A DNA stretch of 64,000 nt from assembly GCF_001542815.1 (NCBI RefSeq), contig NZ_CP006992.1, positions 3,973,501 to 4,037,500 on the forward strand. The letters are read 5' to 3'. Shown here piece by piece: positions 7,412-61,550 of the stretch. The notes under the pieces were generated by a model, which was not told where the DNA came from, ran no database searches, and was given only the letters and a program-made list of their open reading frames with translations. A program made the translations under genes and the position numbers. Position 1 is the stretch's first letter; every line of letters starts with the position of its first letter. The DNA comes from Methylobacterium sp. AMS5. GTDB taxonomy: Bacteria > Pseudomonadota > Alphaproteobacteria > Rhizobiales > Beijerinckiaceae.

Positions 7412-7499
7412 TGCGCATGTCTCCGATCAGGGCCGGGTCGTCCCGGTCCAAGAGCCCTGTCGCGGCCGGGCCGTCCCGGCAGGCCAATTTGGGGTTGGA

Positions 7500-13059: not shown

Positions 13060-13455
13060 GTCTCGTCTCCTGGGGTGGCCGAATGGCCGGACACAGCGTG
13101 CGACGTTCGGTTCGGCTGTCGGGCGCTCGCGGATTTCGAGCGCGCGGAAAGGCGGCGGCAGGCGGGAAAGCCCATCGTCGGGGACCCGGAGCACGAGCGC
13201 CGGGCTAGGGGATCAGGAAGGGAACCGGGAAGAGGGCGCGGATCGGGAAGACCGCAGGCGCGAGACGCTCGCAGCGCCCGCGCACCGGCGCGGCCTATGG
13301 GACGATGCTGGGGAAGCCTTTGCCGAGCGCGGCCGAGGCAAGCCGAAGGCCGGTCGGCGGCGCGGGTCGGACGGCACGCAGGCGTGCATCCGCCGAAAAT
13401 GTCGAAAAGTCTGTCTTGGAGGCTCTGCCGGGCATACGTCCCTTCCCGTATAGAA
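13060..13455 (-). other. long untranslated leader of the guanidine operon
   Basis: About 400 bases separate the end of the riboswitch hairpins from the first start codon. A 46-codon frame (13435 to 13295) lies in it but its composition and lack of homology make it unconvincing. No second promoter or terminator is clear. Confidence 0.5.
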
Positions 13456-13490: not shown

Positions 13491-13600
13491 GCTAGTGAGG
13501 TCTCCCGGGCTTTTATCCCGCCGTGCATCCGCGCGGATGTCTCCCGCCGCGGCAACCGCTCTCGGACCGAACACATCAAAGAGATGCCGGAACCCTAGCG
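13491..13600 (-). promoter_or_regulatory. guanidine-I riboswitch (ykkC class)
   Basis: Read on the minus strand, the leader contains the hallmark blocks of the ykkC/guanidine-I aptamer in the right order: CTAGGGTTCCG (from about 13600), TCGGTCCGAGAG (about 13570-13558), and ACGGCGGGATAAAAGCCCGG (about 13525-13506) followed by GAGA. GCTAG at the 5' end pairs with CTAGC at 13491-13495 to close P1. The class binds guanidinium and turns on guanidine exporters, carboxylases and transporters; this one precedes the guanidine carboxylase operon. Confidence 0.94.
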
Positions 13601-13615
13601 ATCAACTCGATGATG

Positions 13616-18663: not shown

Positions 18664-18761
18664 AGTATCATCCCGAAAGGTGGCCTCCGACTTTCGGGAC
18701 GATGCGAAAACAAGAGGCTAGAGCATCGTCCTGGATTTGATTTCCAGCACGATGCTCTAGG
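18663..18761 (+). repeat. bipartite palindromic repeat, copy 1
   Basis: Hairpin A (CCCGAAAG ... CTTTCGGG, 18672-18698) is followed by hairpin B with 12-bp arms CTAGAGCATCGT / ACGATGCTCTAG (18718-18760). Copy 2 at 27750 is the reverse complement of this unit and identical across hairpin B. It begins at the stop codon of the porin gene. Confidence 0.85.
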
Positions 18762-27749: not shown

Positions 27750-27857
27750 TGCTAGAGCATCGTGCTGGAAATCAAATCCAGGACGATGCTCTAGACTCTA
27801 TTTTTCGCATCATCTCTTTTCCGAAAGCCGGCAACCACCTTTCGGGACGATGCTCTA
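27750..27857 (-). repeat. bipartite palindromic repeat, copy 2
   Basis: Same element as copy 1 in opposite orientation: hairpin B arms at 27752-27763 and 27783-27794, then hairpin A (CCGAAAG 27821-27827 / CTTTCGG 27839-27845). The right end overlaps the last codons of the YbaK-type gene. Confidence 0.85.
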
Positions 27858-46880: not shown

Positions 46881-49436
46881 TCAGAAATCGACGGAGGCGG
46901 AGACGATGAAGGTGCGCGGCGCGCCGACGGCGAGGAAGCCGCGGGCGGCGGAGGCCCAGTACGAGTCGTCGAGCAGGTTCTGGACGAGGGCGCGGAACAC
47001 GACGGGCTTTCCGTTCAAGCCCTCTGTCGTGTAGCGCAGGCCGGCATCGAAGCGCGTCCAGTCCGGAACCGACTGGGTGTTGGCCTGATCGTAGAACATG
47101 CTGCTGGTGTAGATCGCCCGTCCCGTCAGGGTCAGGCCCGGCGCCAGCCACGGCGGCAGGTCGTACTCGGCGTAGAGGTTGAACGCGGTATCCGGCACGC
47201 CGGGCGCGGCCCGCCCGTTGAACTGTCCTCCCGGCGTGTTGACCAGTTCCGCGTCGATGAAGGTGACGCCGCCGAGCAGCCGCAGGCCCGGGACGACCTC
47301 GCCGAACACGTTCAGCTCGACGCCGCGGTTCCGCTGACGGCCGCTGACCGAGTAGATGCGGGTCCCGGGATCGGTGAAAGCGTTCGGCAGCTCGATCTCG
47401 AACAGCGCGGCCGTGGCGGCAATGGTGCCGAAATCGTACTTGACGCCGATTTCCTTCTGCCGCCCCACGGCAGGCGGGAAGAGGACATTGGCGTTGATCG
47501 CCGTGAGGGGCGCCGCGGCCACCGGATCGAGCGACTCGATGTAGTTGCCGTAGAAGGACAGGTTCTCGAACGGGCTCAGCACGAAGGTGATGGCGGGGCT
47601 GAAGCGGCCCTCCCGATAGTTCGAGGTCACCTGCCCCTGCGTCGGCCCCGGACGGGTGGCGAAGCCCTGCTGGTCGATCTCCTGATAGCGCCCGCCGAGC
47701 GTCAGCAGGAAGCGGTCGTCGCCGAAGAACGACAGGGTGTCGGCCACCGCCACGCTGCGCGCGGAGAGCTGGGCGAAGAGCGGCTGCGCGGCGGAGCGGG
47801 GAAGCCCGATCGTCGGAATCGATCCGGTCGGCAGATAGACCGGATTGTAGATGTTGATCGTGTAGGGGGTGAAGACGGGCGGGACGAAGCCGCTGCGGAA
47901 GTTCTTGTTGTTCGCCTCGACGGCCGCGATGTTCACCTGATGGTTGAGAAAGCCGGTGCTGAAGCGGGTGCGCAGGCCCACCTCGCCGGTGAGCCCCTGG
48001 ATCTCCTGGGGCTGGATGGCGAGCTGGTTGGTCGCCTGCCCGGTCACGCTCGTCACGCGGTAGTTTGAGGTGAGGAAGTCCTCGTTGTAGCGGCTGGCGC
48101 CACCGGCGATGTAGACCGTCGTGTCGGGCAGGACGTCGTACTCGGCCCGCCCCGCGATCATGCCGTAACGGCTGTCGTTGTACTCGAACGGATTCGCGGT
48201 GTTGGTCCGGTTGTTCGGGGCACGGGGAATCTGAATACCGGGCGCGACCGCGTTGAACAGCGAGGTCGGCGCCGTGACGTTCTGCGTCGAGTGGGTCATG
48301 TCGAGCGAGGCACGGAACCGGTCGCCGCGATAGTCGAGGCCCAGCGCCGCCACGCCCACCTCGATCGCATTGTTGTCGAGCGGCGTGGCGCCGGTGCGGT
48401 AGGCGCCGTTGAAGCGCACGCCCCATTCCTTGAACTCGCCGAAGCGACGGCCGAGGTCGGCATGGGTCCAGATCTGCGCGTCGCTGATGTAGGTCGTGGT
48501 GAGCCGGGCGAACGGCTCGTCGTAGGCGCGCTTCGGGATGAGGTTGATCGTGCCGCCGACGCGGCCGGTGCCGCCGCTCAGGAGCGCGGAGGGCCCCAGC
48601 AGCACCTCGACACGCTCGAGCCCTTCGGTGAAGGCGCGGCGCGGGTTGGCGAGATAGAACAGGCCGTCGAAGGCCGTGTCGAGGTTGGTCACCGAGAAGC
48701 CGCGGATGAAGTAGGAATCGCGCTCGCTGTAGGGCGGCGCGTCGTTGCGCACCGACGAATTGTTCAGCACGACATCGGCGAGCGACACCGCCTGCTGGTC
48801 CTCGATCAGCTTCTCCGTGTAGCCCGTGATGCTGAAGGGCGTCTTCAGGACGGAGCGGTTGCCCAGGAAGCCGACACGGGTTCCCGAGCCGACCTGGCCG
48901 CCGGCATAGGGCACGGGCGGCTGCCCAACCGTTCCGGTGGGCGGCGGCAGGCCGGCGGCCGTGGCACGGCCCTGCCCTTGAGCCTGTCCCTGGACGTGCA
49001 GTTCGTCGAGCGTCACCGTCCCGGCCGGCTCGGCGCCGAGCTGGACGTAACGCGGGTTGACCAGGGTGATGGTCGAGGCGCCGGCCGGGCGATAGGTGAG
49101 GCCGGTGCCGTCCAAGAGCCTGGTCAGGGCGTCGAGCGGGGCGAACGCGCCCGCGAGCCCCGGTGTCTCCAGCCGCGCCGTCAGCTCGGTCGGGTAGACC
49201 AGCTTGACCCCGGCCTGCTCGGTGAAGGCGACGAGGCCGGCCTCCAGCGATCCCTTAGGGATGGCGAGCCGGACGGGAGCGCCCCCCAGCGGGGCTTCTG
49301 CCAGGATCGTGGGGCCGCTGGGCCGCTTCGCCTCGCCGGCTTGCACGGCCGCCGGAGCCATCACCGCGACGGACACGCCGGCCAGCGCGATCCCCGCCAT
49401 CCGGCCCTGTGAAAACCTGCGCGCGCGCGACGCCAT
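46881..49436 (-). CDS. mluA: TonB-dependent outer-membrane receptor, FecA/transducer type
   Basis: 851 residues. Signal peptide to about residue 35, a secretin/TonB short N-terminal (STN) signalling domain (about 45-125, including LEAGLVAFTEQAGVKLVYP), plug domain (about 200-310) and a beta-barrel ending in SASVDF. The STN domain marks a receptor that signals to an anti-sigma factor, matching the FecR and sigma genes next door. It should import the metal complex of the compound made by the divergent mll genes. The symbol follows my recollection of the AM1 locus. Confidence 0.9.
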   Translation of the reverse strand: MASRARRFSQGRMAGIALAGVSVAVMAPAAVQAGEAKRPSGPTILAEAPLGGAPVRLAIPKGSLEAGLVAFTEQAGVKLVYPTELTARLETPGLAGAFAPLDALTRLLDGTGLTYRPAGASTITLVNPRYVQLGAEPAGTVTLDELHVQGQAQGQGRATAAGLPPPTGTVGQPPVPYAGGQVGSGTRVGFLGNRSVLKTPFSITGYTEKLIEDQQAVSLADVVLNNSSVRNDAPPYSERDSYFIRGFSVTNLDTAFDGLFYLANPRRAFTEGLERVEVLLGPSALLSGGTGRVGGTINLIPKRAYDEPFARLTTTYISDAQIWTHADLGRRFGEFKEWGVRFNGAYRTGATPLDNNAIEVGVAALGLDYRGDRFRASLDMTHSTQNVTAPTSLFNAVAPGIQIPRAPNNRTNTANPFEYNDSRYGMIAGRAEYDVLPDTTVYIAGGASRYNEDFLTSNYRVTSVTGQATNQLAIQPQEIQGLTGEVGLRTRFSTGFLNHQVNIAAVEANNKNFRSGFVPPVFTPYTINIYNPVYLPTGSIPTIGLPRSAAQPLFAQLSARSVAVADTLSFFGDDRFLLTLGGRYQEIDQQGFATRPGPTQGQVTSNYREGRFSPAITFVLSPFENLSFYGNYIESLDPVAAAPLTAINANVLFPPAVGRQKEIGVKYDFGTIAATAALFEIELPNAFTDPGTRIYSVSGRQRNRGVELNVFGEVVPGLRLLGGVTFIDAELVNTPGGQFNGRAAPGVPDTAFNLYAEYDLPPWLAPGLTLTGRAIYTSSMFYDQANTQSVPDWTRFDAGLRYTTEGLNGKPVVFRALVQNLLDDSYWASAARGFLAVGAPRTFIVSASVDF

Positions 49437-49569
49437 ACCAAAGCCCCATCGATCCGTCGGGAGGGGCGGCACGCCGTGCGCCGCCGCGCCCTCGATGGTT
49501 AAGATCAACGGGGGCGCCACCTCCTGACGTGGGAAGAGCGATTTTTTTCGCCTCTCCTCGTCGCCCTGC

Positions 49570-50544
49570 TCACAGGGGCGATCCGACCAGCACCAGCAGG
49601 GGCGAGAGCCGCCGGATGCGCGTGCCCATGGTCGCGGCGATCACGTCGAGGGCGTCGTCCGTGTTGCGGGCATCGAACGCGCCGGTCACGCGCCGCTCGC
49701 CGAGCCCACGGTCGAGCAGCACGATGCGCCCGCGGCGGTAGCGGTTCAGTTCCGCCAGGACCGCCGCCAGCGGCTTTCCGGAAAAGATCAGCCGGCCGTC
49801 GCGCCACGCCGTGGCCCGCTCCACATCCGCCGCCGCCACGTGCAGGGCGTCGCCGCCGATCCGGACTTCCTCCCCGGCCGAGACGACGACGCGCCCGCTC
49901 TCGGCCGAGACATCGACACGCCCCTCCGCGACGCCCACCGGACTGTCCGCCCCGTCCGCGCGCAGGAAGAACCGGGTTCCGACCGCGCGCACGCTCAGGC
50001 CGCCGCCCCGCACCACGAAGGGCCGGCTCGGATCGGGCACGACATCGAAGCTGGCCTCGCCGCGCAGAACCGCGATCCCGCGCTCCCCCGCGGTGAACCG
50101 CACCGCGATCGCCGTGTCCGTGTTGAGGTCGACGCGGCTGCCGTCGGGCAGCGTCGCGTGCTCGATGGTGCCGACGCCACTCCACAGATCCGCGCGGAGC
50201 CGGTCGAGGAGACCGGTCTCGTAGGCCAGGGCGGCGGCGATCAGGGCGACGGCGGCCAGGCCGGCGAGCGACTTCGGTGTCTTGTTCGATGTTTTGTCCG
50301 ACGTCTTGCGCGGGCGGGGATCGGGCAGATGCCCGAGCCGGCGCCACAGCGCATCCATCTCGGCATAGGCCGCCGCGTGGACGGGATCGGCCTTGCGCCA
50401 GGCCTCGAAGGCCCTGTGATCGGCTTGCGTGGCGTCGGAGGAGGAGAGCCGCGCGACCCAGGCCGCGGCCTCGCGCTCGACCGGATCCTCATCGCCGTCG
50501 GCCTCGTCAGTCTCTTCGGCCTCCGTCCCGTCGCTGCCGGCCAC
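49570..50544 (-). CDS. mluR: FecR-type anti-sigma/sigma regulator
   Basis: About 324 residues. N-terminal cytoplasmic DUF4880-like segment (WVARLSSSDATQADHRAFEAW), a single membrane span near residue 85-100 (LAGLAAVALIAAALAYE), then a periplasmic FecR domain. It relays receptor occupancy to the sigma factor. No ATG fits; GTG at 50544 has a GGGGGG run six bases upstream, GTG at 50565 is an alternative. Symbol by recollection of the AM1 locus. Confidence 0.87.
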   Translation of the reverse strand: MAGSDGTEAEETDEADGDEDPVEREAAAWVARLSSSDATQADHRAFEAWRKADPVHAAAYAEMDALWRRLGHLPDPRPRKTSDKTSNKTPKSLAGLAAVALIAAALAYETGLLDRLRADLWSGVGTIEHATLPDGSRVDLNTDTAIAVRFTAGERGIAVLRGEASFDVVPDPSRPFVVRGGGLSVRAVGTRFFLRADGADSPVGVAEGRVDVSAESGRVVVSAGEEVRIGGDALHVAAADVERATAWRDGRLIFSGKPLAAVLAELNRYRRGRIVLLDRGLGERRVTGAFDARNTDDALDVIAATMGTRIRRLSPLLVLVGSPL

Positions 50545-50641
50545 GCCAATCCCCCCGGGGCCCACCGCGGCCCGAAATGGCGCAGCGCGGGTGTCCTATC
50601 CCCTTAGATCAACGAGGTCGCCGCCTCCTGATGCGACTCGT

Positions 50642-51163
50642 TCAAAAAAGATCGAGGCGGCTGCGCCGGCAATGCAGCAGGGCCTTGATGATGTGCTTCT
50701 CGACCATGTTGCGCGAAATGCCGAGGCGCTGCGCGATCTCGCCGTTCGCGAGGCCGTCGAGGCGGCTGAGCAGGAACACCTCGCGGCAGCGGGGCGGCAA
50801 CGCGTCGATCGCCGCAGCCAGGCGCTTCAGCTCCTGGCGGGCGATCGTCTGCCGCTCGGGGAGGGCGTAGCCGTCGGCGATCTCGGCGAGTTCCGCCTCG
50901 CATTTCGCCGCGAACAGAATCCGCTCCAGCCGGCCGCGGTTGCGCATCCGAAGGGCGACGTTGGTGGCGATGCGGAACAACAGGGCCGAGGGGTGCTCGA
51001 TGCTCGTGCGCGAGAGCGCGGCGACCATGCGCAGGTAGGTTTCCTGGCTCGCATCCGCGGCGTCGGCCGGGTTGTCGAGCAGGCGCTGGAGGAAGCGCCG
51101 GAGCTTCAGCCCTTCGTGACGGTAGAGGGCATCGATCGACACCCCCGCCGCCCCTCCCGCCAT
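50642..51163 (-). CDS. mluI: ECF sigma factor, FecI-like
   Basis: 173 residues from ATG 51163, with sigma-70 region 2 (about 10-75, DASQETYLRM) and region 4 (about 110-160, LPPRCREVFLLSRLDGLANGE). FecI-type sigma factors are activated by a FecR protein when the outer-membrane receptor is loaded. An in-frame GTG extends it by 11 residues but lacks a ribosome binding site. Symbol by recollection. Confidence 0.88.
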   Translation of the reverse strand: MAGGAAGVSIDALYRHEGLKLRRFLQRLLDNPADAADASQETYLRMVAALSRTSIEHPSALLFRIATNVALRMRNRGRLERILFAAKCEAELAEIADGYALPERQTIARQELKRLAAAIDALPPRCREVFLLSRLDGLANGEIAQRLGISRNMVEKHIIKALLHCRRSRLDLF

Positions 51164-52046
51164 GAGGTCGGTCCCGTCGCCCACAGATGATCCCACGCTG
51201 ATCGATGACTGAGGACCGACCAGAAGGAGACGCGTGGATTATGCAAGCCCCACAATAGCTTGTATCATTTCCAGTCTAGAGGACGATACTGTCGCAAAAC
51301 GTTGCACAGACAGTCGAAATACCCGCCCCAGAAACAAGACGAGAATTATAACAGCTAAAGACTACAAGTCATTTCATGGCCTCGTTGCGAATAAGCAACG
51401 GATTTTCCATCGCGGCGCAACGCGCGCTTCACGCGTCGCGATCATCCGACGGGGCCGGGAGCGAAGCCCGGTTCGGAGACGGACGGCGATGCGATGTGGC
51501 GGTCCGGCGCGGCAGGATCGCGGGCACAATCAGAGATGGCTCGCTGAACGTGCTCACGCCGTGACCGGCGGAGGCATGAAACAGGCCCGCACTCGATAAA
51601 ACGGCGGACAAATAAAGAATATTTTCGATGGCAACCAACTGCCACGACAATGCAACCGGGCCACCACCCTATATCAAGAACAATTCCAATAAATTCATCT
51701 TCTCTTGACGCATGCTTTGAGTTTGCGCAACACGCCTTCAGCCTCAAGCGATTCGAGGGAGTCCTCAGTCCGATGAGCAATTACAACGAAGAGCAACTTT
51801 TTTCCCTACGCTTCCATCGACGACCTTTTCTTTCTCTCGAAACCGCACGCTCCCCCACGCCTGCCGCAACGCTGAGTTCGCCGCGCGCTCAGGCCTGATG
51901 ACGACGATGACGCACAGGCTGCCCGGCGGCCGGACTGCCGCATCGATCCGACGGCGCGGCGCCGGGCCGGCAGATCGGAAATTCGGGCGCACGCCCCCGC
52001 CGCGATCCGGCCGGGCCCTCAAGGCTCACACGAGGTTTCGAAGATC
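51164..52046. other. AT-richer divergent regulatory region of the metallophore locus
   Basis: 883 bases between the sigma factor and mllA, clearly lower in GC than the genes around it, especially 51230-51420 and 51600-51800. It must contain promoters for both divergent units. A 41-codon frame at 51773-51898 lacks a good ribosome binding site. I see no RNA gene or transposon. Confidence 0.5.
51383..51400. promoter_or_regulatory. 18-bp palindrome, candidate operator
   Basis: CGTTGC and GCAACG form perfect 6-bp arms around GAATAA, in the AT-rich part between the sigma factor and mllA. Palindromes of this size fit a dimeric metalloregulator. No named consensus (Fur, Irr, RirA) matches convincingly. 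Confidence 0.35.
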
Positions 52047-53831
52047 ATGCCACCATCGTCTCAAGCCGTTGCCGAGGCGGCCGCCTTCCGCAGCTTCGCC
52101 AACGGATATCTGCGCGAGATCGACTCCGGCATCCGCATCCGGCACGCGCTGACGGACGGGCCGCCCGCGCCGTGCGTCGAGTGGAACCTGCGCAGCCGCC
52201 GCCTTGCGATCCGCGCCGAGATCCTGTCGCCCTCGCTGTGCGGCGCGCACGCGTTCGGCCGCCTCTGGACCCGCCACCTGCACGAGCCGCGCTGGCGGCC
52301 GGTGGCGCCGATGCGCGCGCTTCAGGAGCTTCTCGGCGAGGCCTATTCGCGCACGGATGAGGGGCGGGGCGAGACCGCCCGCGAGCGCGAATTGGAACTG
52401 CTCGGGCGCGTGCTCGACAGCTACCGCGAGACCGCGCGCCTGCTCGACCTCGCCGAGCGGACGGCGGAGGCGGAAACCGGCTTCATCGCCGCCGAGCGCG
52501 CCCTCGTCTTCGGCCACTGGCTGCATCCGACGCCCAAGAGCCGGCAGGGCCTCACGACCTGGCAGGCCCGGGCCTACGCGCCGGAGGAGGGGGGCACGTT
52601 CCAGCTCGCGGTGTTCGGCGCCGAGGCGAGCCTCGTCCGTCACGACTCGGCGGTGGCCCGCGCCGCGCCCGACCTCGCCCTCGACCTGCTCGGCCCCGAC
52701 GCCGCCCGGCTGGGCTTGCGCGCCGACGAGATCGCCCTGCCGATGCATCCGCTCCAGGCCGAGGCGCTGATGCTGGAGCCGCACGTCGCCGCATGGGTCG
52801 AGGCGGGCCGCCTGCGGCGGCTCGGCGCCTTCGGCCCCCGCTTCACCGCGACCTCCTCGCTGCGCACCGTCTACGCGGCCGAGAGCCCGTGGATGGCGAA
52901 GTTCTCGCTGCCCGTCACCCTCACCAACTCGCTGCGGGTGAACCGGCTCGCCGAACTCAAGGCCGGCGTCGCCATGGCCCGGCTGCTGGCGAAAAGCCCG
53001 TTCGCCGCGCGCCATCCCAACTTCCGGCTCCTCGCCGACCCCGCCTACCTCACCCTGCACAACCCCGACCGCGAGGAGAGCGGCTTCGAGACGGTCCTGC
53101 GCGAGAACCCGTTCCGCGACGGGGTGGAGCGGGGTGTCGCCACACTGGCTGCGCTCACCGCCGAGCCGCTGCCCGGCCGGCTCTCGCGGCTGGAGGCCCT
53201 TCTGCGGCAGGTCTGCCCGGAGGGTTCGGCGGCGCGCGCCCAGGCCGCCCGCAGGTGGTTCGCCCGCTATCTCGATTGCATGCTGGAGCCCGTCGTCGCC
53301 CTCTACGACGCGCATGGCATCGCGTTGGAGGCTCACCAACAGAACGCGCTGCTCGATGTCGCCTCCGGCTGGCCCGAGCGCGGCTTCTACCGCGACAACC
53401 AGGGCTTCTACCTCTCGGAATCCGCTCGCCCCCGGCTGCTGCGCGACGCGCCCGAGACCGCTTCAATCGCCTCGCTCTATTTCCCGGACGGCGAGATCCG
53501 CCGACGGCTTGCCTACTATCTCGTGGTCAACCAGATCTTCTCCGTCGTCGCCCGGATCGGCCATGACGGGCTGGCGCGCGAGGAAACGCTCCTCGACGAC
53601 CTCGCCCGCCGCCTGGAGGCGATGGCACGCCGCATGACCGGCGCCGGTCGCGCCTTCGCCCGCTCGGTGCTCGACGGTCCGAGCCTCTGCACCAAGGCCA
53701 ACCTGCGGGTGCGCCTGTCCGACCGCGACGAACTCGCCTCGGGCGACGGCACCGGCAACTACATCGACATGCCGAACCCGCTCATGCTTCGGGCGGCTCG
53801 GGGCGAGGCCGGCCATGCCCTCGCGTCCTGA
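52047..53831 (+). CDS. mllA: NIS siderophore synthetase A (IucA/IucC family, AsbA-like)
   Basis: 594 residues. NRPS-independent siderophore synthetase motifs: HWLHPTPKSRQG, LTNSLRVN, EAHQQNALLD and YRDNQGFYLSES, the last two being the FhuF/IucA-C region. In petrobactin synthesis AsbA adenylates citrate and joins it to spermidine. It heads the asbABCDEF-like order. The next gene starts 17 bases inside it. Symbol follows the methylolanthanin locus of M. extorquens AM1. Confidence 0.93.
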   Translation: MPPSSQAVAEAAAFRSFANGYLREIDSGIRIRHALTDGPPAPCVEWNLRSRRLAIRAEILSPSLCGAHAFGRLWTRHLHEPRWRPVAPMRALQELLGEAYSRTDEGRGETARERELELLGRVLDSYRETARLLDLAERTAEAETGFIAAERALVFGHWLHPTPKSRQGLTTWQARAYAPEEGGTFQLAVFGAEASLVRHDSAVARAAPDLALDLLGPDAARLGLRADEIALPMHPLQAEALMLEPHVAAWVEAGRLRRLGAFGPRFTATSSLRTVYAAESPWMAKFSLPVTLTNSLRVNRLAELKAGVAMARLLAKSPFAARHPNFRLLADPAYLTLHNPDREESGFETVLRENPFRDGVERGVATLAALTAEPLPGRLSRLEALLRQVCPEGSAARAQAARRWFARYLDCMLEPVVALYDAHGIALEAHQQNALLDVASGWPERGFYRDNQGFYLSESARPRLLRDAPETASIASLYFPDGEIRRRLAYYLVVNQIFSVVARIGHDGLAREETLLDDLARRLEAMARRMTGAGRAFARSVLDGPSLCTKANLRVRLSDRDELASGDGTGNYIDMPNPLMLRAARGEAGHALAS

Positions 53832-56796
53832 GACGATGGAGCAGCCCGAAGCGCGTGTCCTGCGCCAGTTGGCGGAAGCCGTCCTGTTCGAGGGGCTGGC
53901 CGAGCGCGAGCCGGCCCGCGACGTCGCCGGTCGGATCGCGTGGCGTCTCGGCCCGCACCGCTTCCGCGCGACCGGCACCCTCGGCCCGTTCGACCGCCCT
54001 CGCCTCGATCCCGGTTCGGTCGAGATGGCGGGCGAAGAGGGCGGCTGGGTGCCGGCCGACCTCTCCATCCTCGTGGAAGCCCTTCCCGCCGCACCGGAGC
54101 ACCGGACGCGGCTGCTGGCCGAGCTTCGGCAGACGGTCGAACTCTGCCGCTGGAACGCCCGAAACCTAGCGTTGCCGGAGCGCCGCCTTCTGCCCTTCGC
54201 CGCGCTCGATGCGGCTTTGTGGGAGGGCCATCCCTACCATCCGAGCTTCAAGGCGCGCACCGGCTTCACCCTGGAGGATCACCGCCGCTACGGCCCCGAG
54301 GCCGCCGCGCCGTTCCGCCTCGGATGGCTGGCTGTGCGCCGAGACACGATCGCCCTTGCGCTGCCGGGCCCGGAGGACAGGTTCTGGCGGGCCGAACTCG
54401 GCGATGCCCGGGACGTGCTGACCCGCCGCCTCGACGAGGCCGGGCATTCCCTCGACACGCACGCGCTGATGCCGGTCCATCCCTGGCAGATGCGCCGGCT
54501 CGAAGAGGAGGCTTTGCGCCCGTGGCTGGCGGAGGGCCGCGCCGTCGCGCTCGGCACCGCCGGCCCGCGCTACCTCGCGAGCCAGTCTCTGCGCACGCTG
54601 CACAATTGCGACGACCCGTCCGCCGCGAGCGTGAAACTGGCCTTGAGTGTCGTCTCGACCTCGAGCCTGCGCATCCTCGATCCGCATTTCGTGCTGACCG
54701 GCCCGGCCCTGTCCGACTGGCTCGCCGACCTCGTCGCCGCCGATCCCGCGCTGCACGGCCGCGTGACGGTGCTGCGCGAATACGCCGCCGCGCTCGCCGA
54801 CCGGGACGGGCCGCTCGCCGGGCAGCTCGCCGCGATCTGGCGGGAGAGCCCGCGTCTCGCACCCGGCGAGGCGGCCTTGCCCTTCAACGCGCTGGCCGTG
54901 TGCGAGGCGGATGGCAGCCCCTTCGTCGCGCCCTGGCTCGATCGCTACGGCCGCGATGCCTGGCTCGACCGCCTCGTCGCGGTCGCGGTGCTGCCGGTCT
55001 GGCACCTGCTCGCGGCCCACGGCGTCGCCCTGGAGGCGCACGGCCAGAACATGATTCTGGTCCACCGCGACGGCTGGCCGGACCGGGTGATCCTGCGCGA
55101 CTTCCACGAGAGCGCGGAATACGTCCCCGACTTCGTGACGAGTCCGGAGCGCGTGCCGGATTTCGGGGCGATCGACCCGGCCCATGCCGGGCCGGCGGAT
55201 GACCGCTTCCACGCCATGCGCTCGGCCGCGACGCTGGCCGAACTCGTCACCGACAGCCTGTTCGTCTTCAACCTCAGCGAGATCACCGCTCTCCTCGGGC
55301 GCCGGCACGGTCTCGACGAGCCAGGGTTCTGGCGCCGCATCGGCCGGCAGTTGCGGCGCCACGCGGCGGAGCATGGGCTGGAGGCGCGGCTCGCCCGGCT
55401 CGCGGTCGAAGCGCCCCGGCTGCGGGTCGAGGCGCTGCTGTCGCGCAAGCTCGGGCTCGGCGAGGCGCGCGGCAGCCTCCATGCGCCCAACTCGCTGTTC
55501 CCTTCCCCCGACGCCACTTCCGGAGCCTGCATGATCGAGATCGACGGCCGCACCATCCCGGCGGACGCGATGGAGGCCGCCATCCGGCGCGTCGAGGCTG
55601 CGGCGGCCTTGCGCGGCGGCAGCGGCGAGCGCGTCGCCGCGCGCTTCCGCGACACCGCCCAGGGGCTCGCCTTCATCCTCGCCGCCCGCCGCAGCGGGGC
55701 GAGCCTGCTGCCGATCCATCCGGCGCTGCCGGACGAGGGCGCGCGCCGGCTCGCCGCGCGCGCCGGCTGCCACCGCCTGTTCCTCGACGGCCTGGAGAGC
55801 GAGACCCTGGACGGCGCCGCCCCGCCGGTTCCGGGGGAGGGCGAGCTGCTCCAGATGAGTTCGGGCACCACCGGCGAGCCCAAATGCATCGCCCGCCGCT
55901 GGAGCGCGGTGGAGCGCGAGGTCGAGAGCTATGTCGGCGCCTTCACCGAGCCGGCCGGGATGACCCCGGTCATCGCCTGCCCGATCACCCATTCCTACGG
56001 GCTGATCTGCGGATTGTTCGTGGGCCTGCGCCGCGGTCGCATGCCGGTGATCGTGGACACCACCAACCCGAAATACCTCCTGCGCCGCCTGCGCGAGATC
56101 GAGCGGCCGGTGCTCTACACCGCGCCGGCCATGCTGCACACGCTGGCCCGGCTGATGCCCGAGGGCGAGACCCTCCACGCGGCGATGGTCTCGGGCACGC
56201 TTCTGCCCGCACCCTGGTTTTCCGCCATCCGCGGGCGCGTCACCCACCTGTTCCAGCAATACGGCTGCTCGGAAGCCGGCTGCATCGCGATCAATCCGGA
56301 TCTGCGCCGCGCCGACGCCATCGGCCGCCCGCTGCCGCATCACCGCGTCCGGGCGGGGACCGGCCCCGAGGCCCCGGCGGAACTCGTGGTCGAGGGGGAG
56401 GGCGGGGCGATCCACACCGCCGATCTCGGCTATCGCGAGCCCGACGGCATGCTGGTCTTCGTCGCGCGCAAGGACGACACGATCAACGTCTCGGGCCTCA
56501 ACGTCTATCCCGGCGAGGTCGAGGACGTGGTGATGGCCATGCCCGGCATCACCGACGCCGTAGCCTTCGCCCGGCCCGACCCGTTCGCGGGCGAGCGGGT
56601 GACGCTGCTGTTCAGCGCTGAAAGCCCCGTGCCGCCCCGCGCGCTGCAGGACTGGTGCCGCCGCTGGCTCGCCGGCCACCAAGTGCCGGTCGAGGCGGTG
56701 CAGGTCGGCGCGATCCCGCGCGAGGCCAACGGCAAGATTTCTCGACGCGCGGTCGCCGCGCAATACCGGGGCGGCGGCCTGGAGGCGGTGGCGTGA
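53815..56796 (+). CDS. mllBC: fused NIS synthetase and aryl-acid AMP-ligase (AsbB+AsbC-like)
   Basis: 993 residues. The first ~570 residues are a second IucA/IucC synthetase (HPYHPSFKARTGF, SQSLRTLHN, EAHGQNMILVHRDG). The rest (about 575-993) is an acyl-AMP ligase with SSGTTGEPK near 682, YGCSEAG and NGKISRR near the end, expected to load a hydroxybenzoate onto the carrier protein of the next gene. In Bacillus AsbB and AsbC are separate. ATG at 53836 is an alternative start. The stop overlaps the next GTG. Confidence 0.93.
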   Translation: MPSRPETMEQPEARVLRQLAEAVLFEGLAEREPARDVAGRIAWRLGPHRFRATGTLGPFDRPRLDPGSVEMAGEEGGWVPADLSILVEALPAAPEHRTRLLAELRQTVELCRWNARNLALPERRLLPFAALDAALWEGHPYHPSFKARTGFTLEDHRRYGPEAAAPFRLGWLAVRRDTIALALPGPEDRFWRAELGDARDVLTRRLDEAGHSLDTHALMPVHPWQMRRLEEEALRPWLAEGRAVALGTAGPRYLASQSLRTLHNCDDPSAASVKLALSVVSTSSLRILDPHFVLTGPALSDWLADLVAADPALHGRVTVLREYAAALADRDGPLAGQLAAIWRESPRLAPGEAALPFNALAVCEADGSPFVAPWLDRYGRDAWLDRLVAVAVLPVWHLLAAHGVALEAHGQNMILVHRDGWPDRVILRDFHESAEYVPDFVTSPERVPDFGAIDPAHAGPADDRFHAMRSAATLAELVTDSLFVFNLSEITALLGRRHGLDEPGFWRRIGRQLRRHAAEHGLEARLARLAVEAPRLRVEALLSRKLGLGEARGSLHAPNSLFPSPDATSGACMIEIDGRTIPADAMEAAIRRVEAAAALRGGSGERVAARFRDTAQGLAFILAARRSGASLLPIHPALPDEGARRLAARAGCHRLFLDGLESETLDGAAPPVPGEGELLQMSSGTTGEPKCIARRWSAVEREVESYVGAFTEPAGMTPVIACPITHSYGLICGLFVGLRRGRMPVIVDTTNPKYLLRRLREIERPVLYTAPAMLHTLARLMPEGETLHAAMVSGTLLPAPWFSAIRGRVTHLFQQYGCSEAGCIAINPDLRRADAIGRPLPHHRVRAGTGPEAPAELVVEGEGGAIHTADLGYREPDGMLVFVARKDDTINVSGLNVYPGEVEDVVMAMPGITDAVAFARPDPFAGERVTLLFSAESPVPPRALQDWCRRWLAGHQVPVEAVQVGAIPREANGKISRRAVAAQYRGGGLEAVA

Positions 56797-58097
56797 GCAA
56801 CGAGACGCTGATCGCGGCCATCGGCACGGTGCTGCGCGAGGAGATGCGCCATCCCCATCTCGATGGGTTCGGGCCGGACGCACGGCTGAACGAGGATCTC
56901 TACCTCGATTCCGTCCAGTTGCTTCAGCTCATCCTGGCGCTGGAGCTGACGCACGGGGTGTCGGTGCCCGAAGCGGCGATCAACCGGCAGGACGTCTCCA
57001 CCGTCGCCGACCTCGCCCGGCTGCTGACGCCGGGCGCTGAGCCGGTCGCCGCCGAGCCCGAGACGCCCTCCGAGGGCGTCCACGGCGCGATGCCCTACGA
57101 CCTGAAGATCCACTGCTTCGTCAGTTGCGTCTGCGACGGGCTGAAGGCGCGGGGCATCGACCATCGCCCGTTCTACGCCCTGATCTGGGACGCCGAGTTC
57201 GCCATCACCGACGGCACGCGGCTCGCCTACCACTCGGACGCGATGGATCACGAGTCGTTCCGCTACTGGTTCGAGCGGCTCTACGGCGTGCCGCTCGTCT
57301 CCTGGTACGACCATTCCCGTTCGAAGGACGAGAACGTCGCCACCCTGCTCGGCCTCATGGAGCGGCGCGAGCCGGACACGCGCATCATGGTGATGCTCGA
57401 CATGTTCCACCTCCCCGAGCGGGAGAACAAGTTCAACCAGAACCCCTTCCCGCATTACCTGCTGGTCGAAGGCAGCGACGACCCGGCCCTCTGGCAAGTG
57501 CGCGACCCCGACTTCCGCTGGGCGGGCGTGATCGAGCGCGAGCGGATGCTGAACGCCATCCGCCAGCCGAGCGTCGCCGGCGGCTACCGCTTCGACCCAT
57601 CGCGGGCCCATCCGCCGGCGGACACGGATCTGGCGGCCTTTTTCGAGGCCTGCTTCCGGTTCGACACCAACCCGCTGATCGATGCCGCGCGCGCCATCGT
57701 GCTTGCCCATGCCGAGGGACGCGGCGGGCTGAAGCTGACGGAGGTCGGCGAGGCCCTGCGCGAACTGCCGGTCATCACCATCCGCAAATGGGCCTACGAG
57801 CACGGCTTCGCTTTCTTCTGGCGGGCCCTGCGCTGGCCGGACCCGGAATTCCAGCGGATCTGCGACGAGATCGAGTCCCTGGTGAACGGCCTCACCGCCC
57901 TGCACTACGCCGTGCTGAAGCTCGCCCGGACCGGGGAGATGGGGGAGGTCGCCCCCGTCCTCGCGCGTCTCGACGCGCTCGACGCGCAGGAATTCGCGAT
58001 CAAGCGGCAGCTCGCTTCGGCCTACGCGGCGTGGCGGGAGAAGAGCCCGGATCTCGGACAGACCGCCGTATCCTTCCGCGAAAGGCTCTCCGCATGA
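56793..58097 (+). CDS. mllDE: fused aryl carrier protein and aryl-spermidine condensing enzyme (AsbD+AsbE-like)
   Basis: 434 residues. Residues 1-80 form an acyl carrier domain with the phosphopantetheine serine at S40 (EDLYLDSVQLL). Residues ~100-434 match AsbE, which transfers the carrier-bound aryl group to a spermidine arm. The start is GTG at 56793 (GTGA overlap with mllBC) with GGAGG seven bases upstream. The stop overlaps mllF (ATGA). Fusion of carrier and transferase should channel the aryl thioester. Confidence 0.92.
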   Translation: MSNETLIAAIGTVLREEMRHPHLDGFGPDARLNEDLYLDSVQLLQLILALELTHGVSVPEAAINRQDVSTVADLARLLTPGAEPVAAEPETPSEGVHGAMPYDLKIHCFVSCVCDGLKARGIDHRPFYALIWDAEFAITDGTRLAYHSDAMDHESFRYWFERLYGVPLVSWYDHSRSKDENVATLLGLMERREPDTRIMVMLDMFHLPERENKFNQNPFPHYLLVEGSDDPALWQVRDPDFRWAGVIERERMLNAIRQPSVAGGYRFDPSRAHPPADTDLAAFFEACFRFDTNPLIDAARAIVLAHAEGRGGLKLTEVGEALRELPVITIRKWAYEHGFAFFWRALRWPDPEFQRICDEIESLVNGLTALHYAVLKLARTGEMGEVAPVLARLDALDAQEFAIKRQLASAYAAWREKSPDLGQTAVSFRERLSA

Positions 58098-58930
58098 GAA
58101 TCGCGCTCTGCACCATCAGCTTTCGCCACCATCTGGTGTCGGTCGGCGAGCTCGCCCGCTTCGCCCGCGGCCACGGCTTCGACGGGATCGAGTTGTGGGG
58201 CGTTCACGCCCGCAATCTCGGCCCCGGCGACCACGCCGAATGGCTCGCCGCCTACGGGCTGCGGGTGCCGATGCTGAGCGACTACCTGCCGCTCGACGCA
58301 GCCACCAGCACCCTGACCGAGCGGACCGCCGAACTTGCCGGCCTCGCGCGGAGCTGGGGGGCGCCGCGGCTGCGCACCTTCGCCGGGACCAAGGCCAGCG
58401 CCACCACCGCGCCGGAGGAGCGCGCCCACGTCGCCCAGCGCCTGCGGATGGCGGCGGGCCAGCTCGCCGACCAGGGCCTGCGCCTCGTGGTGGAGACGCA
58501 TCCCGGCACGCTCGCCGACACCACCGATTCGCTCCTCGACCTGCTGGACGCGGTCGATCACCCGAACCTCCGGGTCAATTTCGACACGCTCCACGTCTGG
58601 GAGGGCGGCGACGACCCGCTCGCGGCCCACGCCCGGCTTGGCCCGCATATCGACTACTATCACCTCAAGAACGTGCGCAGCCGCGCCGACCTGTCGGTGT
58701 TCGAGCCGGCCAACGTCTACGCCGCGGCCGGACGGCGCGAGGGCATGACCGCCCTGTTCGACGGCGCGCTGGATTACGGCACCTTCCTCAAGACGCTGCC
58801 GCCGCAGGCGGAAGGCTCGCTCGAATGGTTCGGCGAGGCCAGCTTCTCGGTCCTGCCCACAGACCTTTTTCGCGTGCGGGCGGCCACCGCCGGTCGCCGC
58901 ACCGAGAGCCCCCGCCACGCCGCACGCTGA
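58094..58930 (+). CDS. mllF: 3-dehydroshikimate dehydratase-like enzyme (AsbF-like)
   Basis: 278 residues, TIM-barrel of the xylose-isomerase-like family, the same length as AsbF. Metal-site segments are VVETHPGTLAD, NFDTLHVWEG, YYHLKNV and EWFGEASF. AsbF dehydrates 3-dehydroshikimate to 3,4-dihydroxybenzoate, the aryl unit of petrobactin. I recall that methylolanthanin carries 4-hydroxybenzoate, so either this enzyme has a different outcome or the ligase chooses another acid. Confidence 0.9.
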   Translation: MRIALCTISFRHHLVSVGELARFARGHGFDGIELWGVHARNLGPGDHAEWLAAYGLRVPMLSDYLPLDAATSTLTERTAELAGLARSWGAPRLRTFAGTKASATTAPEERAHVAQRLRMAAGQLADQGLRLVVETHPGTLADTTDSLLDLLDAVDHPNLRVNFDTLHVWEGGDDPLAAHARLGPHIDYYHLKNVRSRADLSVFEPANVYAAAGRREGMTALFDGALDYGTFLKTLPPQAEGSLEWFGEASFSVLPTDLFRVRAATAGRRTESPRHAAR

Positions 58931-58958
58931 GCGAGCACGGCACAGCCAGGAAACCGAC

Positions 58959-59237
58959 ATGCCCGAGAGCCACGCCGTCGTCAGCACCCCCCATGCCAGC
59001 CGCTACATCCAGCAGCTTTGCAAGCACTGGGCCCACCGGTTCGAGACCGAGTTCAGCCCGACCGATGCCCGGATCGCGCTGCCGCTCGGCGAGACGCGGC
59101 TGAGTGCCGACCCCGAGACCCTGACAATCGACCTGACGGCACAGGATGCCGCCAGCCTGCCCGACCTGCGCGAGGTGGTCGTGCGCCACATCGAGCGCTT
59201 CGCCTTCCGCGAAACGCTGCGCTTCGAATGGACGTGA
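58959..59237 (+). CDS. DUF2218 protein
   Basis: 92 residues, DUF2218 family (TPHASRYIQQLCKHWAHRF near the N-terminus, HIERFAFRE near the end). Such proteins recur next to siderophore uptake and reductase genes, so a cytoplasmic role with metal-siderophore handling is plausible; the molecular function is unknown. It is 28 bases downstream of mllF and likely cotranscribed. Confidence 0.85.
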   Translation: MPESHAVVSTPHASRYIQQLCKHWAHRFETEFSPTDARIALPLGETRLSADPETLTIDLTAQDAASLPDLREVVVRHIERFAFRETLRFEWT

Positions 59238-59278
59238 GCAACGCCGGCCAAGGCAGCATGGCGGCGTTGCCTCGGCAA

Positions 59279-59326
59279 GCACACCGCCCCTCTTGCACAC
59301 CGCCCCTCATGCACACCGCCCCTCAG
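59279..59326 (+). repeat. 16-bp tandem repeat, three copies
   Basis: GCACACCGCCCCTC plus two variable bases (TT, AT, AG) is repeated three times without interruption, 41 bases after the DUF2218 stop. Confidence 0.88.
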
Positions 59327-59334
59327 GCTGAGGT

Positions 59335-59352
59335 GCCGAGCGAAAGCTCGGC
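59335..59352 (+). repeat. REP-like hairpin with GAAA loop
   Basis: GCCGAGC and GCTCGGC form a perfect 7-bp stem closed by a GAAA tetraloop, flanked by CTGAGGT and CTCGAAGCA. This composition (CTGAGGT, hairpin, CCTCGAAG) is familiar from dispersed rhizobial/methylobacterial repeats. The remaining ~190 bases to the next gene hold nothing recognised. Confidence 0.6.
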
Positions 59353-59543
59353 CTCGAAGCACTCCGGAACGATCGATCCGAAACGTTCGATCCGACGGCA
59401 TCGGCGACCGGGATCAACGTCGCGGCGTGCTTCGCGGCTGCTGCCGCAGCACCTCCGCGTGAGGATCGTCATCGTTGCCGGAAGGGACCGGTCGAACCGG
59501 CTCTCGGCGAAATCATGCCCCTTCACACGGAGCGAGGACCAGT

Positions 59544-60044
59544 ATGGATGTGACGATACGGGCCATGCGCGCGGAGGACGCTCAGGATCTGTTCGAGATC
59601 TACAACCAGCCCGCCTTCCGCTTCGGAACGCTGGCGCTCCCCTATGAATCGTTCGAGGCGGTGAAGAAGTGGGCCGAGCCCCGCTCGCCGCGGGATCTGC
59701 ATCTTGCCGCGGAGCGGGACGCCCGCGTCGTCGGGGCGGCGGCTCTGCGCCCCTTCTACGGCCGGCGCGCGCACGCGGCGGAGTTCTGGATCGCCGTCCA
59801 TGAGGATTTCGCCGGATACGGCATCGGCTCGCGGCTTCTCGCCGCTGTGATCGACACGGCCGACAACTGGATCAATATTTCGCGAATCGAGATGACGGTC
59901 TTCACCGACAACGCCCGCGCCATCGCCCTCTACGAAAAGTTCGGCTTCACCATCGAGGGGACCCACAAGGCGGCCTCGTTCCGCAACGGCATCTTCGCCG
60001 ACGTGCATTGCATGGCCCGTTTGCGTCCCTCGATCGGCCCCTGA
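59544..60044 (+). CDS. GNAT-family N-acetyltransferase
   Basis: 166 residues; the acetyl-CoA loop is in EDFAGYGIGSRLL and the C-terminal NARAIALYEKFGF is classic GNAT. ATG at 59544 has GAGG seven bases upstream. It follows the mll genes after 306 bases on the same strand. Petrobactin relatives from Rhodopseudomonas are N-acetylated, so acetylation of a spermidine arm is a reasonable guess; a generic acetyltransferase is equally possible. Confidence 0.85.
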   Translation: MDVTIRAMRAEDAQDLFEIYNQPAFRFGTLALPYESFEAVKKWAEPRSPRDLHLAAERDARVVGAAALRPFYGRRAHAAEFWIAVHEDFAGYGIGSRLLAAVIDTADNWINISRIEMTVFTDNARAIALYEKFGFTIEGTHKAASFRNGIFADVHCMARLRPSIGP

Positions 60045-60210
60045 ATCCCGGCAGCAAACCCGGCCCGGATCGCCCAAGCGTCTTCGTTCGGTACGCCCCT
60101 GCTACAGCAGGGCCATTGCTGATTTCGCGAAGGTTTCGACCGTCAGACTCCGGCACCGCCCAAGAACATCGGCGCCCGGCTGTCGTTTCCAGACCGGGAG
60201 ATCCGAGACC

Positions 60211-60557
60211 ATGCAGCGGCGCGATTTTCTGACGACCCTACTGACGGCGACAGCGGCCCTGGCCGTCGCCCACACCGCCCTGGCGCAACCGGCGCCGGCA
60301 GGGGCCATGCCGGCACCCATCGACCTCGCCATGGCGACGAATCTCCGGGATGCCGCCCGGTCCCGAATACGACGCGATGTTCGTCAACGCCTCGCTCCAG
60401 GGCCATCAGGAAGCCGACCCGATCCACGGCTCCTACGCGCAAGCCGGCGACGACCCGGCCCTGCGCTGCATCGCGGCCGGCGCGCTCCCGCTGCCAGCGG
60501 CACATCGCTGAGCTCACGCCGATGCAGGCGACGATGGGCGGCGAACGGGAGGGCTGA
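60211..60557 (+). pseudogene. exported DUF4142-like protein broken by two frameshifts
   Basis: The start encodes a clear signal peptide (MQRRDFLTTLLTATAALAVA, then a cut after AHTALA). Near 60350 the coherent protein moves to the next frame (EYDAMFVNASLQGHQEAD), and near 60495 to a third frame (QRHIAELTPMQATMGG), ending at TGA 60555-60557. Joined, the pieces resemble a DUF4142-type periplasmic protein. Two shifts and the short length indicate a decayed gene. A bipartite repeat starts at its stop codon. Confidence 0.65.
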
Positions 60558-60760
60558 GCATCGTCCCGAAAGCCGGCAACCGGCTTTCGGAACGACGCAA
60601 GAACAAGAGGCCCGAGCAGGCCGCGCTCGCTGAAGACCGAGGGGGTCAACGCGAGGACGCGTCGGTCCCTGGCCCCCGGTGTCCACGGACCTGACTGAGG
60701 CCGAAGCAGGCCCGAGAACGCGGCGCATCGCTCGGATTTCGATTTCCGGAGCGATGCGCC
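60557..60760 (+). repeat. bipartite palindromic repeat, copy 3 (diverged and split)
   Basis: Hairpin A is CCGAAAGCCGG (60566-60576) / CCGGCTTTCGG (60580-60590), preceded by AGCATCGTC and followed by AAGAACAAGAGG as in copy 1. A diverged hairpin B (GGCGCATCGCT 60722-60732 / AGCGATGCGCC 60750-60760, with GATTTCGATTT inside) lies about 130 bases on. The intervening sequence appears inserted or unrelated. Confidence 0.65.
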
Positions 60761-60989: not shown

Positions 60990-61550
60990 AGACCGCGAGG
61001 CCGGAATATCATCTCCGGCCGTTTGCGACCTCTCTTGCACCGGAGGCTCAGCGCCCCCGTGCTTGCGTAAAGCCGGCTGAGCCTGTTGCAGAGTGCAGCA
61101 CCGTCAGCGACGAAAGATCGTCATGGCCAGAACGGCTGCCGAGCGCGCGATTGAGCCGGATACGGAGCAGACGGGTCTTTGCCCTCGGCCGCCAGAGGCG
61201 CGGACCGTTTCCCAATACCCTTTCAGCCAGCGGCGGGCTTCGAGCACACCGACGACAGCTCCTACTGTCGAAGCTGTTACAACGGATATGACGACCTTCG
61301 AAGAATCCCAACCCAGCAAATATTCATCAGGACCAAGTCCTGGTTGATTACCATGCCGGTACCTATGGCAATCCCTAGAGCATCATCGTCCCGAAAGGTG
61401 GTTGCCGACTTTCGGGACGATGCTCTAAGCCGGCCGTCTCGGCAAGGGTTGCACACACCGACTTGTGCGTCGGTGCGCCGGATCATCGTTCAGCGATCGG
61501 ACCGGCAAACGCGCTCCGACCCCGAACCCTCCCCCTCGGAAGCTCTGCGC
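60990..61550. other. gene-poor region
   Basis: About 560 bases with only short, unconvincing frames (for example 61104-61319 minus, 61093-61347 plus) and one copy of the bipartite repeat. No RNA gene was recognised. Confidence 0.5.
61376..61427 (+). repeat. bipartite palindromic repeat, copy 4 (hairpin A only)
   Basis: TAGAGCATC, ATC, GTCCCGAAAG, then GTGGTTGCCGA, then CTTTCGGGACGATGCTCTA. The outer TAGAGCATC pairs with GATGCTCTA, so here hairpin A alone is enclosed by the outer arms. Sequence is close to copies 1 and 2. Confidence 0.8.

What the first reader, a model, noticed from the sequence alone, without database searches (positions are those of the whole stretch)
46881..60044. Methylolanthanin-type metallophore locus with self-signalling uptake
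The order IucA/C, IucA/C+ligase, carrier+AsbE, AsbF matches petrobactin synthesis, and a divergent TonB receptor with STN domain, FecR and FecI sigma give ligand-controlled uptake. I recall this arrangement as the mll/mlu locus of M. extorquens AM1, whose product binds lanthanides needed by XoxF methanol dehydrogenase. The system is therefore probably known, but it is the most striking locus here.
Basis: partly seen in the sequence, partly recalled or inferred. Interest (0 to 1): 0.75.

Follow-up and report, generated by a model that had tools for sequence, protein, structure and literature searches.

The report
Known mll/rhodopetrobactin metallophore locus
This is a copy, in a relative of Methylorubrum extorquens, of a published gene cluster that makes a citrate-based metal scavenger and its uptake receptor; whether its main product serves lanthanides or simply iron is disputed in the literature, and the genes here fit an iron siderophore at least as well.

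Summary
At 46881-60044 lie an ECF sigma factor, a FecR-type anti-sigma factor and a TonB receptor with an STN domain, divergent from mllA, fused mllBC, mllDE, mllF, mllG (DUF2218) and mllH (GNAT). The order matches mll/mlu of M. extorquens AM1, except that mllJ is broken: about 340 bp are missing that nine of nine Methylorubrum-type genomes checked retain. The same kind of cluster in M. extorquens PA1 was later reported to make rhodopetrobactin B, a 3,4-dihydroxybenzoate iron siderophore, and no methylolanthanin. The window's MllF keeps 11 of 11 published AsbF active-centre residues. XoxF says little: it is in 109 of 111 genus genomes, the cluster in 24 (all with XoxF), and the four nearest non-genus relatives have no XoxF hit. 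Most likely product: a rhodopetrobactin-type siderophore, with methylolanthanin possible beside or instead of it. New here, as far as my searches show: 23 cluster-bearing genomes have no mllF (about six losses); all 23 encode PobA, which makes 3,4-dihydroxybenzoate from 4-hydroxybenzoate, against 16 of 37 genomes that keep mllF. This bears on the open AM1/PA1 discrepancy.

The parts
46881..49520 (-). mluA: TonB-dependent receptor with STN signalling domain (start uncertain; ORF from GTG at 49520)
   Evidence: best PDB sequence relatives FemA and BauA
49570..50565 (-). mluR: FecR-type anti-sigma factor
50642..51196 (-). mluI: FecI-type ECF sigma factor
   Evidence: 98% identical in L003
51267..51272 (-). 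GGAAAT reading towards mluI; GGAA core conserved in 6 of 6 aligned Methylorubrum-type sequences; looks like a FecI -35 element (consensus recalled)
   Evidence: alignment; inference only
51674..51690 (+). TCAAGAACAATTCCAAT, conserved in 6 of 6 aligned sequences, 356 bp upstream of mllA; resembles an Irr (ICE) box at 11 of 15 positions of a consensus written from memory
   Evidence: 2 of 200 shuffles as good; weak
52047..53831 (+). mllA: AsbA-like NIS synthetase (IucA/IucC)
53815..56796 (+). mllBC: AsbB-like NIS synthetase fused to AsbC-like aryl-AMP ligase
   Evidence: PDB 3TO3 AsbB, E 4.6e-85
56793..58097 (+). mllDE: aryl carrier protein (AsbD-like) fused to AsbE-like DUF6005; likely GTG start at 56793
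58094..58930 (+). mllF: AsbF-like 3-dehydroshikimate dehydratase, 11 of 11 listed active-centre residues kept
58959..59237 (+). mllG: DUF2218
   Evidence: 115 bits
59544..60044 (+). mllH: GNAT acetyltransferase, presumed N-acetylation of the homospermidine arm
   Evidence: function by homology to PMC11317620 section 6
60211..60553 (+). mllJ remnant: 329-344 bp of the relatives' gene missing at about 60341/60342, reading frame broken; intact relatives match DUF4142, the remnant does not
   Evidence: one open frame of 225-230 aa in 9 of 9 distinct Methylorubrum-type genomes checked; DUF4142 scanned in L003 and L004 only (49 bits each)

Best explanation
The locus is the Methylorubrum ortholog of mll/mlu, a rhodopetrobactin-type NIS pathway. 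MllF turns 3-dehydroshikimate into 3,4-dihydroxybenzoate (3,4-DHB); MllC loads the aryl acid on the MllD carrier and MllE transfers it to homospermidine; MllH acetylates the arm; MllA and MllB attach two arms to citrate. The secreted chelator, loaded with metal, is bound by MluA, whose STN domain signals through MluR to the sigma factor MluI, which then raises expression of the locus. The main physiological product in this strain is most likely the 3,4-DHB form (rhodopetrobactin B), an iron siderophore; the 4-hydroxybenzoate form (methylolanthanin) is possible when 4-hydroxybenzoate competes, and either form may bind lanthanides secondarily. Shown here: genes, order, MllF active-centre residues, mllJ loss. 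Inferred: every biochemical step, the signalling, and the product.
For: Same gene order as mll/mlu. MllF keeps 11 of 11 residues that PMC9324987 lists for the AsbF active centre (passages; alignment); 10 of the 11 do not vary in the 66-row alignment (one gap at Tyr70; Tyr217 is His in 8 rows; a few rows are the same genome twice). The PA1 cluster makes rhodopetrobactin B, more under iron limitation, methylolanthanin not detected (passages of PMC13251462). [quoted passage not shown] The cluster is in 24 of 111 genus genomes while XoxF is in 109, and its four nearest non-genus relatives have no XoxF hit at E 1e-80. asbF loss was seen only in PobA-bearing genomes, as expected if the pathway needs 3,4-DHB. 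No UbiC-type chorismate lyase in this genome (1 of 111 in the genus), so no obvious dedicated 4-hydroxybenzoate source.
Against: AM1, whose cluster includes mllF, was reported to make methylolanthanin and no 3,4-DHB analogue, and its locus rose on average 32-fold with Nd2O3 against NdCl3. An intact MllF therefore does not settle the product: a representative labelled M. extorquens (P0003) also keeps all 11 residues, and AM1 and PA1 themselves could not be compared. All 24 cluster-bearing genomes of the genus have XoxF (G005 and G073 in pieces). The Irr-like box is weak. Adenylation-domain specificity was not tested.
Confidence: 0.6

Rival explanations
1. Methylolanthanin lanthanophore: the product carries 4-hydroxybenzoate and its purpose is lanthanide supply to XoxF.
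For: AM1 data: structure by NMR, Ln binding by MS, 30% less Ln in the mutant, induction by Nd2O3 (PMC11317620). The window's genome has XoxF twice with the WDFD motif. All 24 cluster-bearing genus genomes have XoxF, two of them in pieces.
Against: PA1 cluster gives rhodopetrobactin B, no methylolanthanin detected. Methylolanthanin precipitates Ln and stays nanomolar. MllF active centre kept. Cluster absent from 87 of 111 genus genomes although 109 have XoxF, and present in relatives without a XoxF hit.
Confidence: 0.2
2. Dual system: one pathway with relaxed aryl-acid choice makes both forms, set by the ratio of 3,4-DHB (MllF, PobA) to 4-hydroxybenzoate; the AM1/PA1 difference is growth condition or precursor pool, not genes. 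(Overlaps the best explanation, differing in which product dominates.)
For: R. palustris makes minor HB-containing analogues (PMC11317620 discussion). AM1 and PA1 clusters are described as highly similar. The window genome has both MllF and PobA.
Against: Neither study reported both products in one strain: AM1 showed no 3,4-DHB analogue, PA1 no methylolanthanin.
Confidence: 0.35
3. Petrobactin proper or another siderophore made by this NIS cluster.
For: AsbA-F homology.
Against: A GNAT gene and DUF2218 accompany the cluster as in the rhodopetrobactin locus; petrobactin is not acetylated (recalled).
Confidence: 0.05

Closest known systems
mll/mlu locus, Methylobacterium (Methylorubrum) extorquens AM1, META1p4129-4138 (PMC11317620)
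   Same: Gene order, divergent mluIRA, mllBC and mllDE fusions, mllF, mllG, mllH
   Different: mllJ is a remnant in the window; probably a different species (MllF 91% to a representative labelled M. extorquens). AM1's own sequence was not compared
NIS cluster of M. extorquens PA1, product rhodopetrobactin B (PMC13251462)
   Same: Same cluster type, asbF present; authors call it highly similar to AM1's (passages)
Rhodopetrobactin-type clusters of Rhodopseudomonas and Nitrobacter
   Same: In L058 (R. palustris XCP), L060, L072 and L053 (Nitrobacter): asbA-F set, D-E in one frame, GNAT at 70-73%
   Different: B and C split in the six such loci placed; genes spread wider; L046 (R. infernalis) and L057 (R. 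pentothenatexigens) have no mllF, and none in their genomes
Petrobactin asbABCDEF of Bacillus
   Same: Enzyme set; MllF aligns with AsbF 3DX5 over residues 1-257
   Different: Separate genes (fusions named as the difference in PMC11317620); no acetyltransferase and no FecI/FecR/TonB module (recalled)

Membership tests
mll/mlu cluster | Order mluA-mluR-mluI divergent from mllA-mllBC-mllDE-mllF-mllG-mllH | tested here: met
   (orientation read in the window; the paper's gene table gives the order)
mll/mlu cluster | mllBC gene fusion | tested here: met
   993-aa frame with IucA/C, FhuF-like, AMP-binding and AMP-binding_C domains
mll/mlu cluster | mllJ (DUF4142) at the end | tested here: not met
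   about 340 bp missing, frame broken, no DUF4142 match left; not known to be needed for the core pathway
Lanthanophore (methylolanthanin producer) | 4-hydroxybenzoate in the product; Ln-responsive expression; Ln uptake defect on deletion | not testable with these tools
   needs chemistry and mutants; literature divided
Rhodopetrobactin-type catecholate siderophore cluster | 3-dehydroshikimate dehydratase (AsbF) with its active-centre residues | tested here: met
   Y70, R102, E142, H144, D172, H175, H198, K200, F211, Y217, E253 all kept; activity itself not tested
Rhodopetrobactin-type catecholate siderophore cluster | Product contains 3,4-DHB and answers to iron | not testable with these tools
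   inferred from PA1
FecI/FecR/FecA cell-surface signalling | ECF sigma, FecR anti-sigma and a TonB receptor with N-terminal signalling domain, adjacent | tested here: met
   (STN 0.1 bit under its Pfam cut-off, supported by PDB matches)
FecI/FecR/FecA cell-surface signalling | Ligand-dependent activation of MluI | not tested
   needs reporter assays
XoxF-linked lanthanide gene set | Cluster occurrence follows XoxF across genomes | tested here: inconclusive
   Genus: 24 of 24 cluster-bearing genomes have XoxF (G005, G073 in pieces), but so have 109 of 111 genomes, so this says little. Outside: XoxF-level hits (69% identity or more) in 7 of 39 genomes with the cluster, no hit at E 1e-80 in the four nearest relatives G111, G113, G114, G115. 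More distant Ln-type alcohol dehydrogenases were not classified

The most novel reading that the evidence does not exclude
The aryl-acid supply of the mll/rhodopetrobactin family is replaceable. mllF (asbF) has been lost about six times, each time, as far as tested, in genomes that carry PobA, so those clusters probably live on catabolic 3,4-DHB made from 4-hydroxybenzoate (much of it perhaps plant-derived), or default to 4-hydroxybenzoate and make methylolanthanin-type products. The product of one gene cluster would then be set by the aromatic metabolism of the host rather than by the cluster, which would explain why closely similar clusters gave methylolanthanin in one strain and rhodopetrobactin in another.
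Probability: 0.4. Interest if true: 0.55.

Novelty: already known. Interest (0 to 1): 0.35.

Why it matters
The claim that bacteria have a dedicated lanthanide metallophore leans heavily on this cluster, and two groups have reported different products for it. The window shows a further member with the 3,4-DHB enzyme's active centre kept, and the family-wide pattern (asbF kept, or asbF lost with PobA present) points to strains in which the origin of the aryl group can be tested directly.

Tried and rejected
A TGA-N9-TCA scan of the window (RirA-type, recalled) gave 15 sites, more than any of 100 shuffles, but none in the mluI-mllA intergenic region, so no RirA box is claimed. Irr-type box: 10 of 80 scored upstream regions (the window and 79 loci) had at most 10 of 200 shuffles as good; L005 scored badly because its copy lies beyond the 450 bp scanned (it is in the alignment); most other loci score no better than shuffles (simple base shuffles, consensus from memory; the passages of PMC3413700 seen gave no letters for it). 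sigma-70 and terminator scans of the intergenic region gave 1 site each, not convincing. TIGR02360 scores below the cut-off were not counted as PobA. G005, which looked XoxF-less at first, has a XoxF of 80-89% identity split over two frames and was dropped as an XoxF-less case; G022 and G033 have no XoxF-level hit but no cluster either.

Association of mllF loss with PobA: the tip count (23/0 against 15/21, Fisher 1.1e-6) is inflated by relatedness; six losses placed at random by branch length (branches above 25 tips left out) gave P about 0.009, moderate only. Of the 90 tips of the tree, 59 were used: 3 duplicates and 28 tips not tested for PobA (Paracoccus, Roseobacter-type, gammaproteobacterial, and three mllF-less loci L059, L065, L071) were dropped, and L056 was too short for the tree. 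Tree support values were not examined. MllF absence means no hit at E 1e-8; other dehydroshikimate dehydratase types (QsuB, QuiC) were not searched for and could also supply 3,4-DHB. The MllC substrate pocket was considered and not attempted: no AsbC structure was among the 60 of 152 hits shown. No structure prediction was run. The SI of PMC11317620 could not be read, so the missing asbF in M. aquaticum-type clusters may already be drawn there. Searches 'petrobactin + pobA' (4 papers) and 'asbF + Methylobacterium' (4 papers) listed none whose title or abstract start proposes it; beyond the passages of PMC9324987, PMC11317620 and PMC13251462 named in this report I did not open these papers.
Full report
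What is there. The window is G000:C1:3973501-4037500 of a 5.6-Mb, four-contig genome. The open frames and family matches give, on the minus strand from 51196 down, an ECF sigma factor, a FecR-type anti-sigma factor and a TonB receptor with an N-terminal signalling domain; and, on the plus strand from 52047 up, IucA/C, IucA/C fused to an AMP-ligase, a carrier domain fused to DUF6005, an AsbF-like TIM barrel, DUF2218 and a GNAT acetyltransferase. The receptor's nearest solved relatives by sequence are FemA and BauA. AsbB (3TO3) and AsbF (3DX5) are the best solved relatives of mllBC and mllF.

Identity. I read the outline and sections 6, 7, 9 and 10 of PMC11317620. Its Table 1 lists mluA, mluR, mluI, mllA, mllBC, mllDE, mllF, mllG, mllH, mllJ in this order, and it states that the BC fusion had not been seen in characterised homologs. 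The window has the same order and the same two fusions. The nearest loci in the named genomes are Methylobacterium sp. Leaf123 and Methylorubrum species, MllBC 88-92% identical (which may leave out genomes very near the window's). MllF is 91% identical to a representative labelled M. extorquens, so the window probably comes from a related species. The locus itself is known; PMC11317620 already reports homologs in the majority of Methylorubrum species.

One real difference. mllJ is a remnant. Blastn of 60181-60700 finds both halves in nine of nine distinct Methylorubrum-type genomes held, 329-344 bp further apart than in the window (341 in six of the nine); there the gene is one open frame of 225-230 aa, and the two scanned (L003, L004) match DUF4142, which the window's remnant does not. 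mllJ has thus been lost in this strain alone among those seen.

What the product is likely to be. Methylolanthanin carries 4-hydroxybenzoate; rhodopetrobactin B carries 3,4-dihydroxybenzoate (3,4-DHB). The passages of PMC13251462 that I saw say that the cluster in M. extorquens PA1 makes rhodopetrobactin B, markedly more under iron limitation, that methylolanthanin was not detected (data not shown), and that the discrepancy with AM1 is the subject of ongoing work; the medium recipe given for PA1 contains 30 uM LaCl3. PMC12780827 (first of five parts, and passages) reports that methylolanthanin precipitates lanthanides at biological pH, binds Fe(III) weakly and is present at nanomolar level, and that Fe limitation raises Nd accumulation and methylolanthanin secretion. 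In the window, MllF keeps all 11 residues that PMC9324987 (passages) lists for the AsbF active centre. So does a representative labelled M. extorquens, and AM1 has mllF yet was reported with 4-hydroxybenzoate only, so an intact MllF is an argument and not a proof. The genome lacks a UbiC-type chorismate lyase. I expect 3,4-DHB to be made by this locus and rhodopetrobactin B to be the main product, at about three in five, with the methylolanthanin form possible. (I lowered this from 0.65 while checking, because of the P0003 result and the XoxF recount below.)

Link to lanthanide enzymes. The genome has two XoxF-type genes (WDFD motif), MxaF (WDYA) and one more PQQ dehydrogenase above the family cut-off. 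Across the genus, the DUF6005 marker of the cluster is in 24 of 111 genomes. A XoxF query hits 111 of 111 at E 1e-100, but that threshold also admits MxaF: 107 genomes have a hit better than E 1e-250, G005 and G066 have XoxF-level pieces, and G022 and G033 reach only about 50% identity, so I count 109 of 111. All 24 cluster-bearing genomes are among the 109. Outside the genus I gave the genomes of 39 of the 64 non-genus loci, plus 7 genus ones: 23 of 46 match at E 1e-80, and among the 39, seven reach 69% identity or more while nine match at 36-51%. The four closest outsiders by MllBC (63-75%: L010, L022, L025, L026; one of them a MAG) have no match. The cluster thus does not need XoxF in its host, as expected of an iron siderophore; this does not exclude a second role in Ln uptake, and more distant Ln-type dehydrogenases were not classified.

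The mllF pattern. In the clade of M. tarhaniae, M. frigidaeris and M. nonmethylotrophicum, mllB and mllC are separate and mllF is absent; mllDE is followed by mllG within 48-102 bp between matched ends in the eight loci measured. In the two loci viewed further, a periplasmic binding protein (L017, L019) and two FecCD permeases (scanned in L019) follow mllH. Whole-genome searches find MllF in 15 of 111 genus genomes, all of them among the 24 with the cluster; nine cluster-bearing genomes have no hit at E 1e-8. PobA (TIGR02360 above cut-off) is in 26 of 111: in nine of nine without mllF, two of 15 with mllF (the window's genome and G014), and 15 of 87 without the cluster. Outside the genus I tested the genomes of 36 of the 64 loci: 14 lack MllF and all 14 have PobA; 22 have MllF and 14 of them have PobA. 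Three further mllF-less loci (L059, L065, L071) were not tested. Together PobA is in 23 of 23 without and 16 of 37 with mllF. On a tree of MllA, MllC and MllE the tested mllF-less tips fall into six groups; six losses placed at random by branch length land only in PobA-bearing tips with P about 0.009 (59 of 90 tips). PobA makes 3,4-DHB from 4-hydroxybenzoate (established enzymology), so the natural reading is that catabolic 3,4-DHB replaces AsbF. The rival readings, that these clusters use 4-hydroxybenzoate itself or that another dehydroshikimate dehydratase steps in, are not excluded.

Regulation. The 850-bp divergent region has conserved blocks in six of six aligned sequences: a GGAA core upstream of mluI that could be its own -35 element, and ATCAAGAACAATTCCAAT upstream of mllA, which resembles an Irr box but only weakly. 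PMC11317620 reports that the AM1 promoter answers to both Nd and Fe limitation. I saw no inner-membrane importer gene in the locus; the genome has two FecCD permeases elsewhere.

Verdict. Real, correctly identified as mll/mlu, and known. The lanthanide purpose is one of two published readings and, in my judgement, the less likely one for this strain. The added value is the MllF residues, the broken mllJ, and the mllF/PobA pattern, which makes the open AM1/PA1 question testable.

Noticed in passing
window 7433-7482 (-) and 13500-13609 (-): Two different guanidine riboswitch classes (Guanidine-II and Guanidine-I, above gathering scores) in one window, near genes matching urea carboxylase (2401-5931, above cut-off), UAAP1 (6599-7411, above cut-off) and, below cut-off, a urea-type ABC substrate-binding protein (12034-13194): probably a guanidine-degradation locus.
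   Followed up: partly
window 60560-60590 and 61391-61421: Inverted-repeat element (ATCGTCCCGAAAGCCGGCAACCGGCTTTCGG), second copy with 3 mismatches on the other strand, looser matches at 18663-18725 and 27819-27855; REP-like.
   Followed up: no
window 59260-59470: Spacer between mllG and mllH with three copies of GCACACCGCCCCTC and a palindrome; the two genes lie closer together in some relatives.
   Followed up: no
L027-L033 and L035 (Paracoccus): A second, separate occurrence of an mllB-mllC fusion, in a distant clade of the cluster, 8 loci.
   Followed up: partly
G005:C1:5642276-5644089: XoxF of 80-89% identity split over two reading frames in a genome that carries the metallophore cluster.
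   Followed up: no
G000:C1:4125237-4126403 (outside the window): pobA in the window's genome, found in only 2 of 15 mllF-bearing members of the genus; in G014, the other one, it lies on contig C2 while the cluster is on C1.
   Followed up: no
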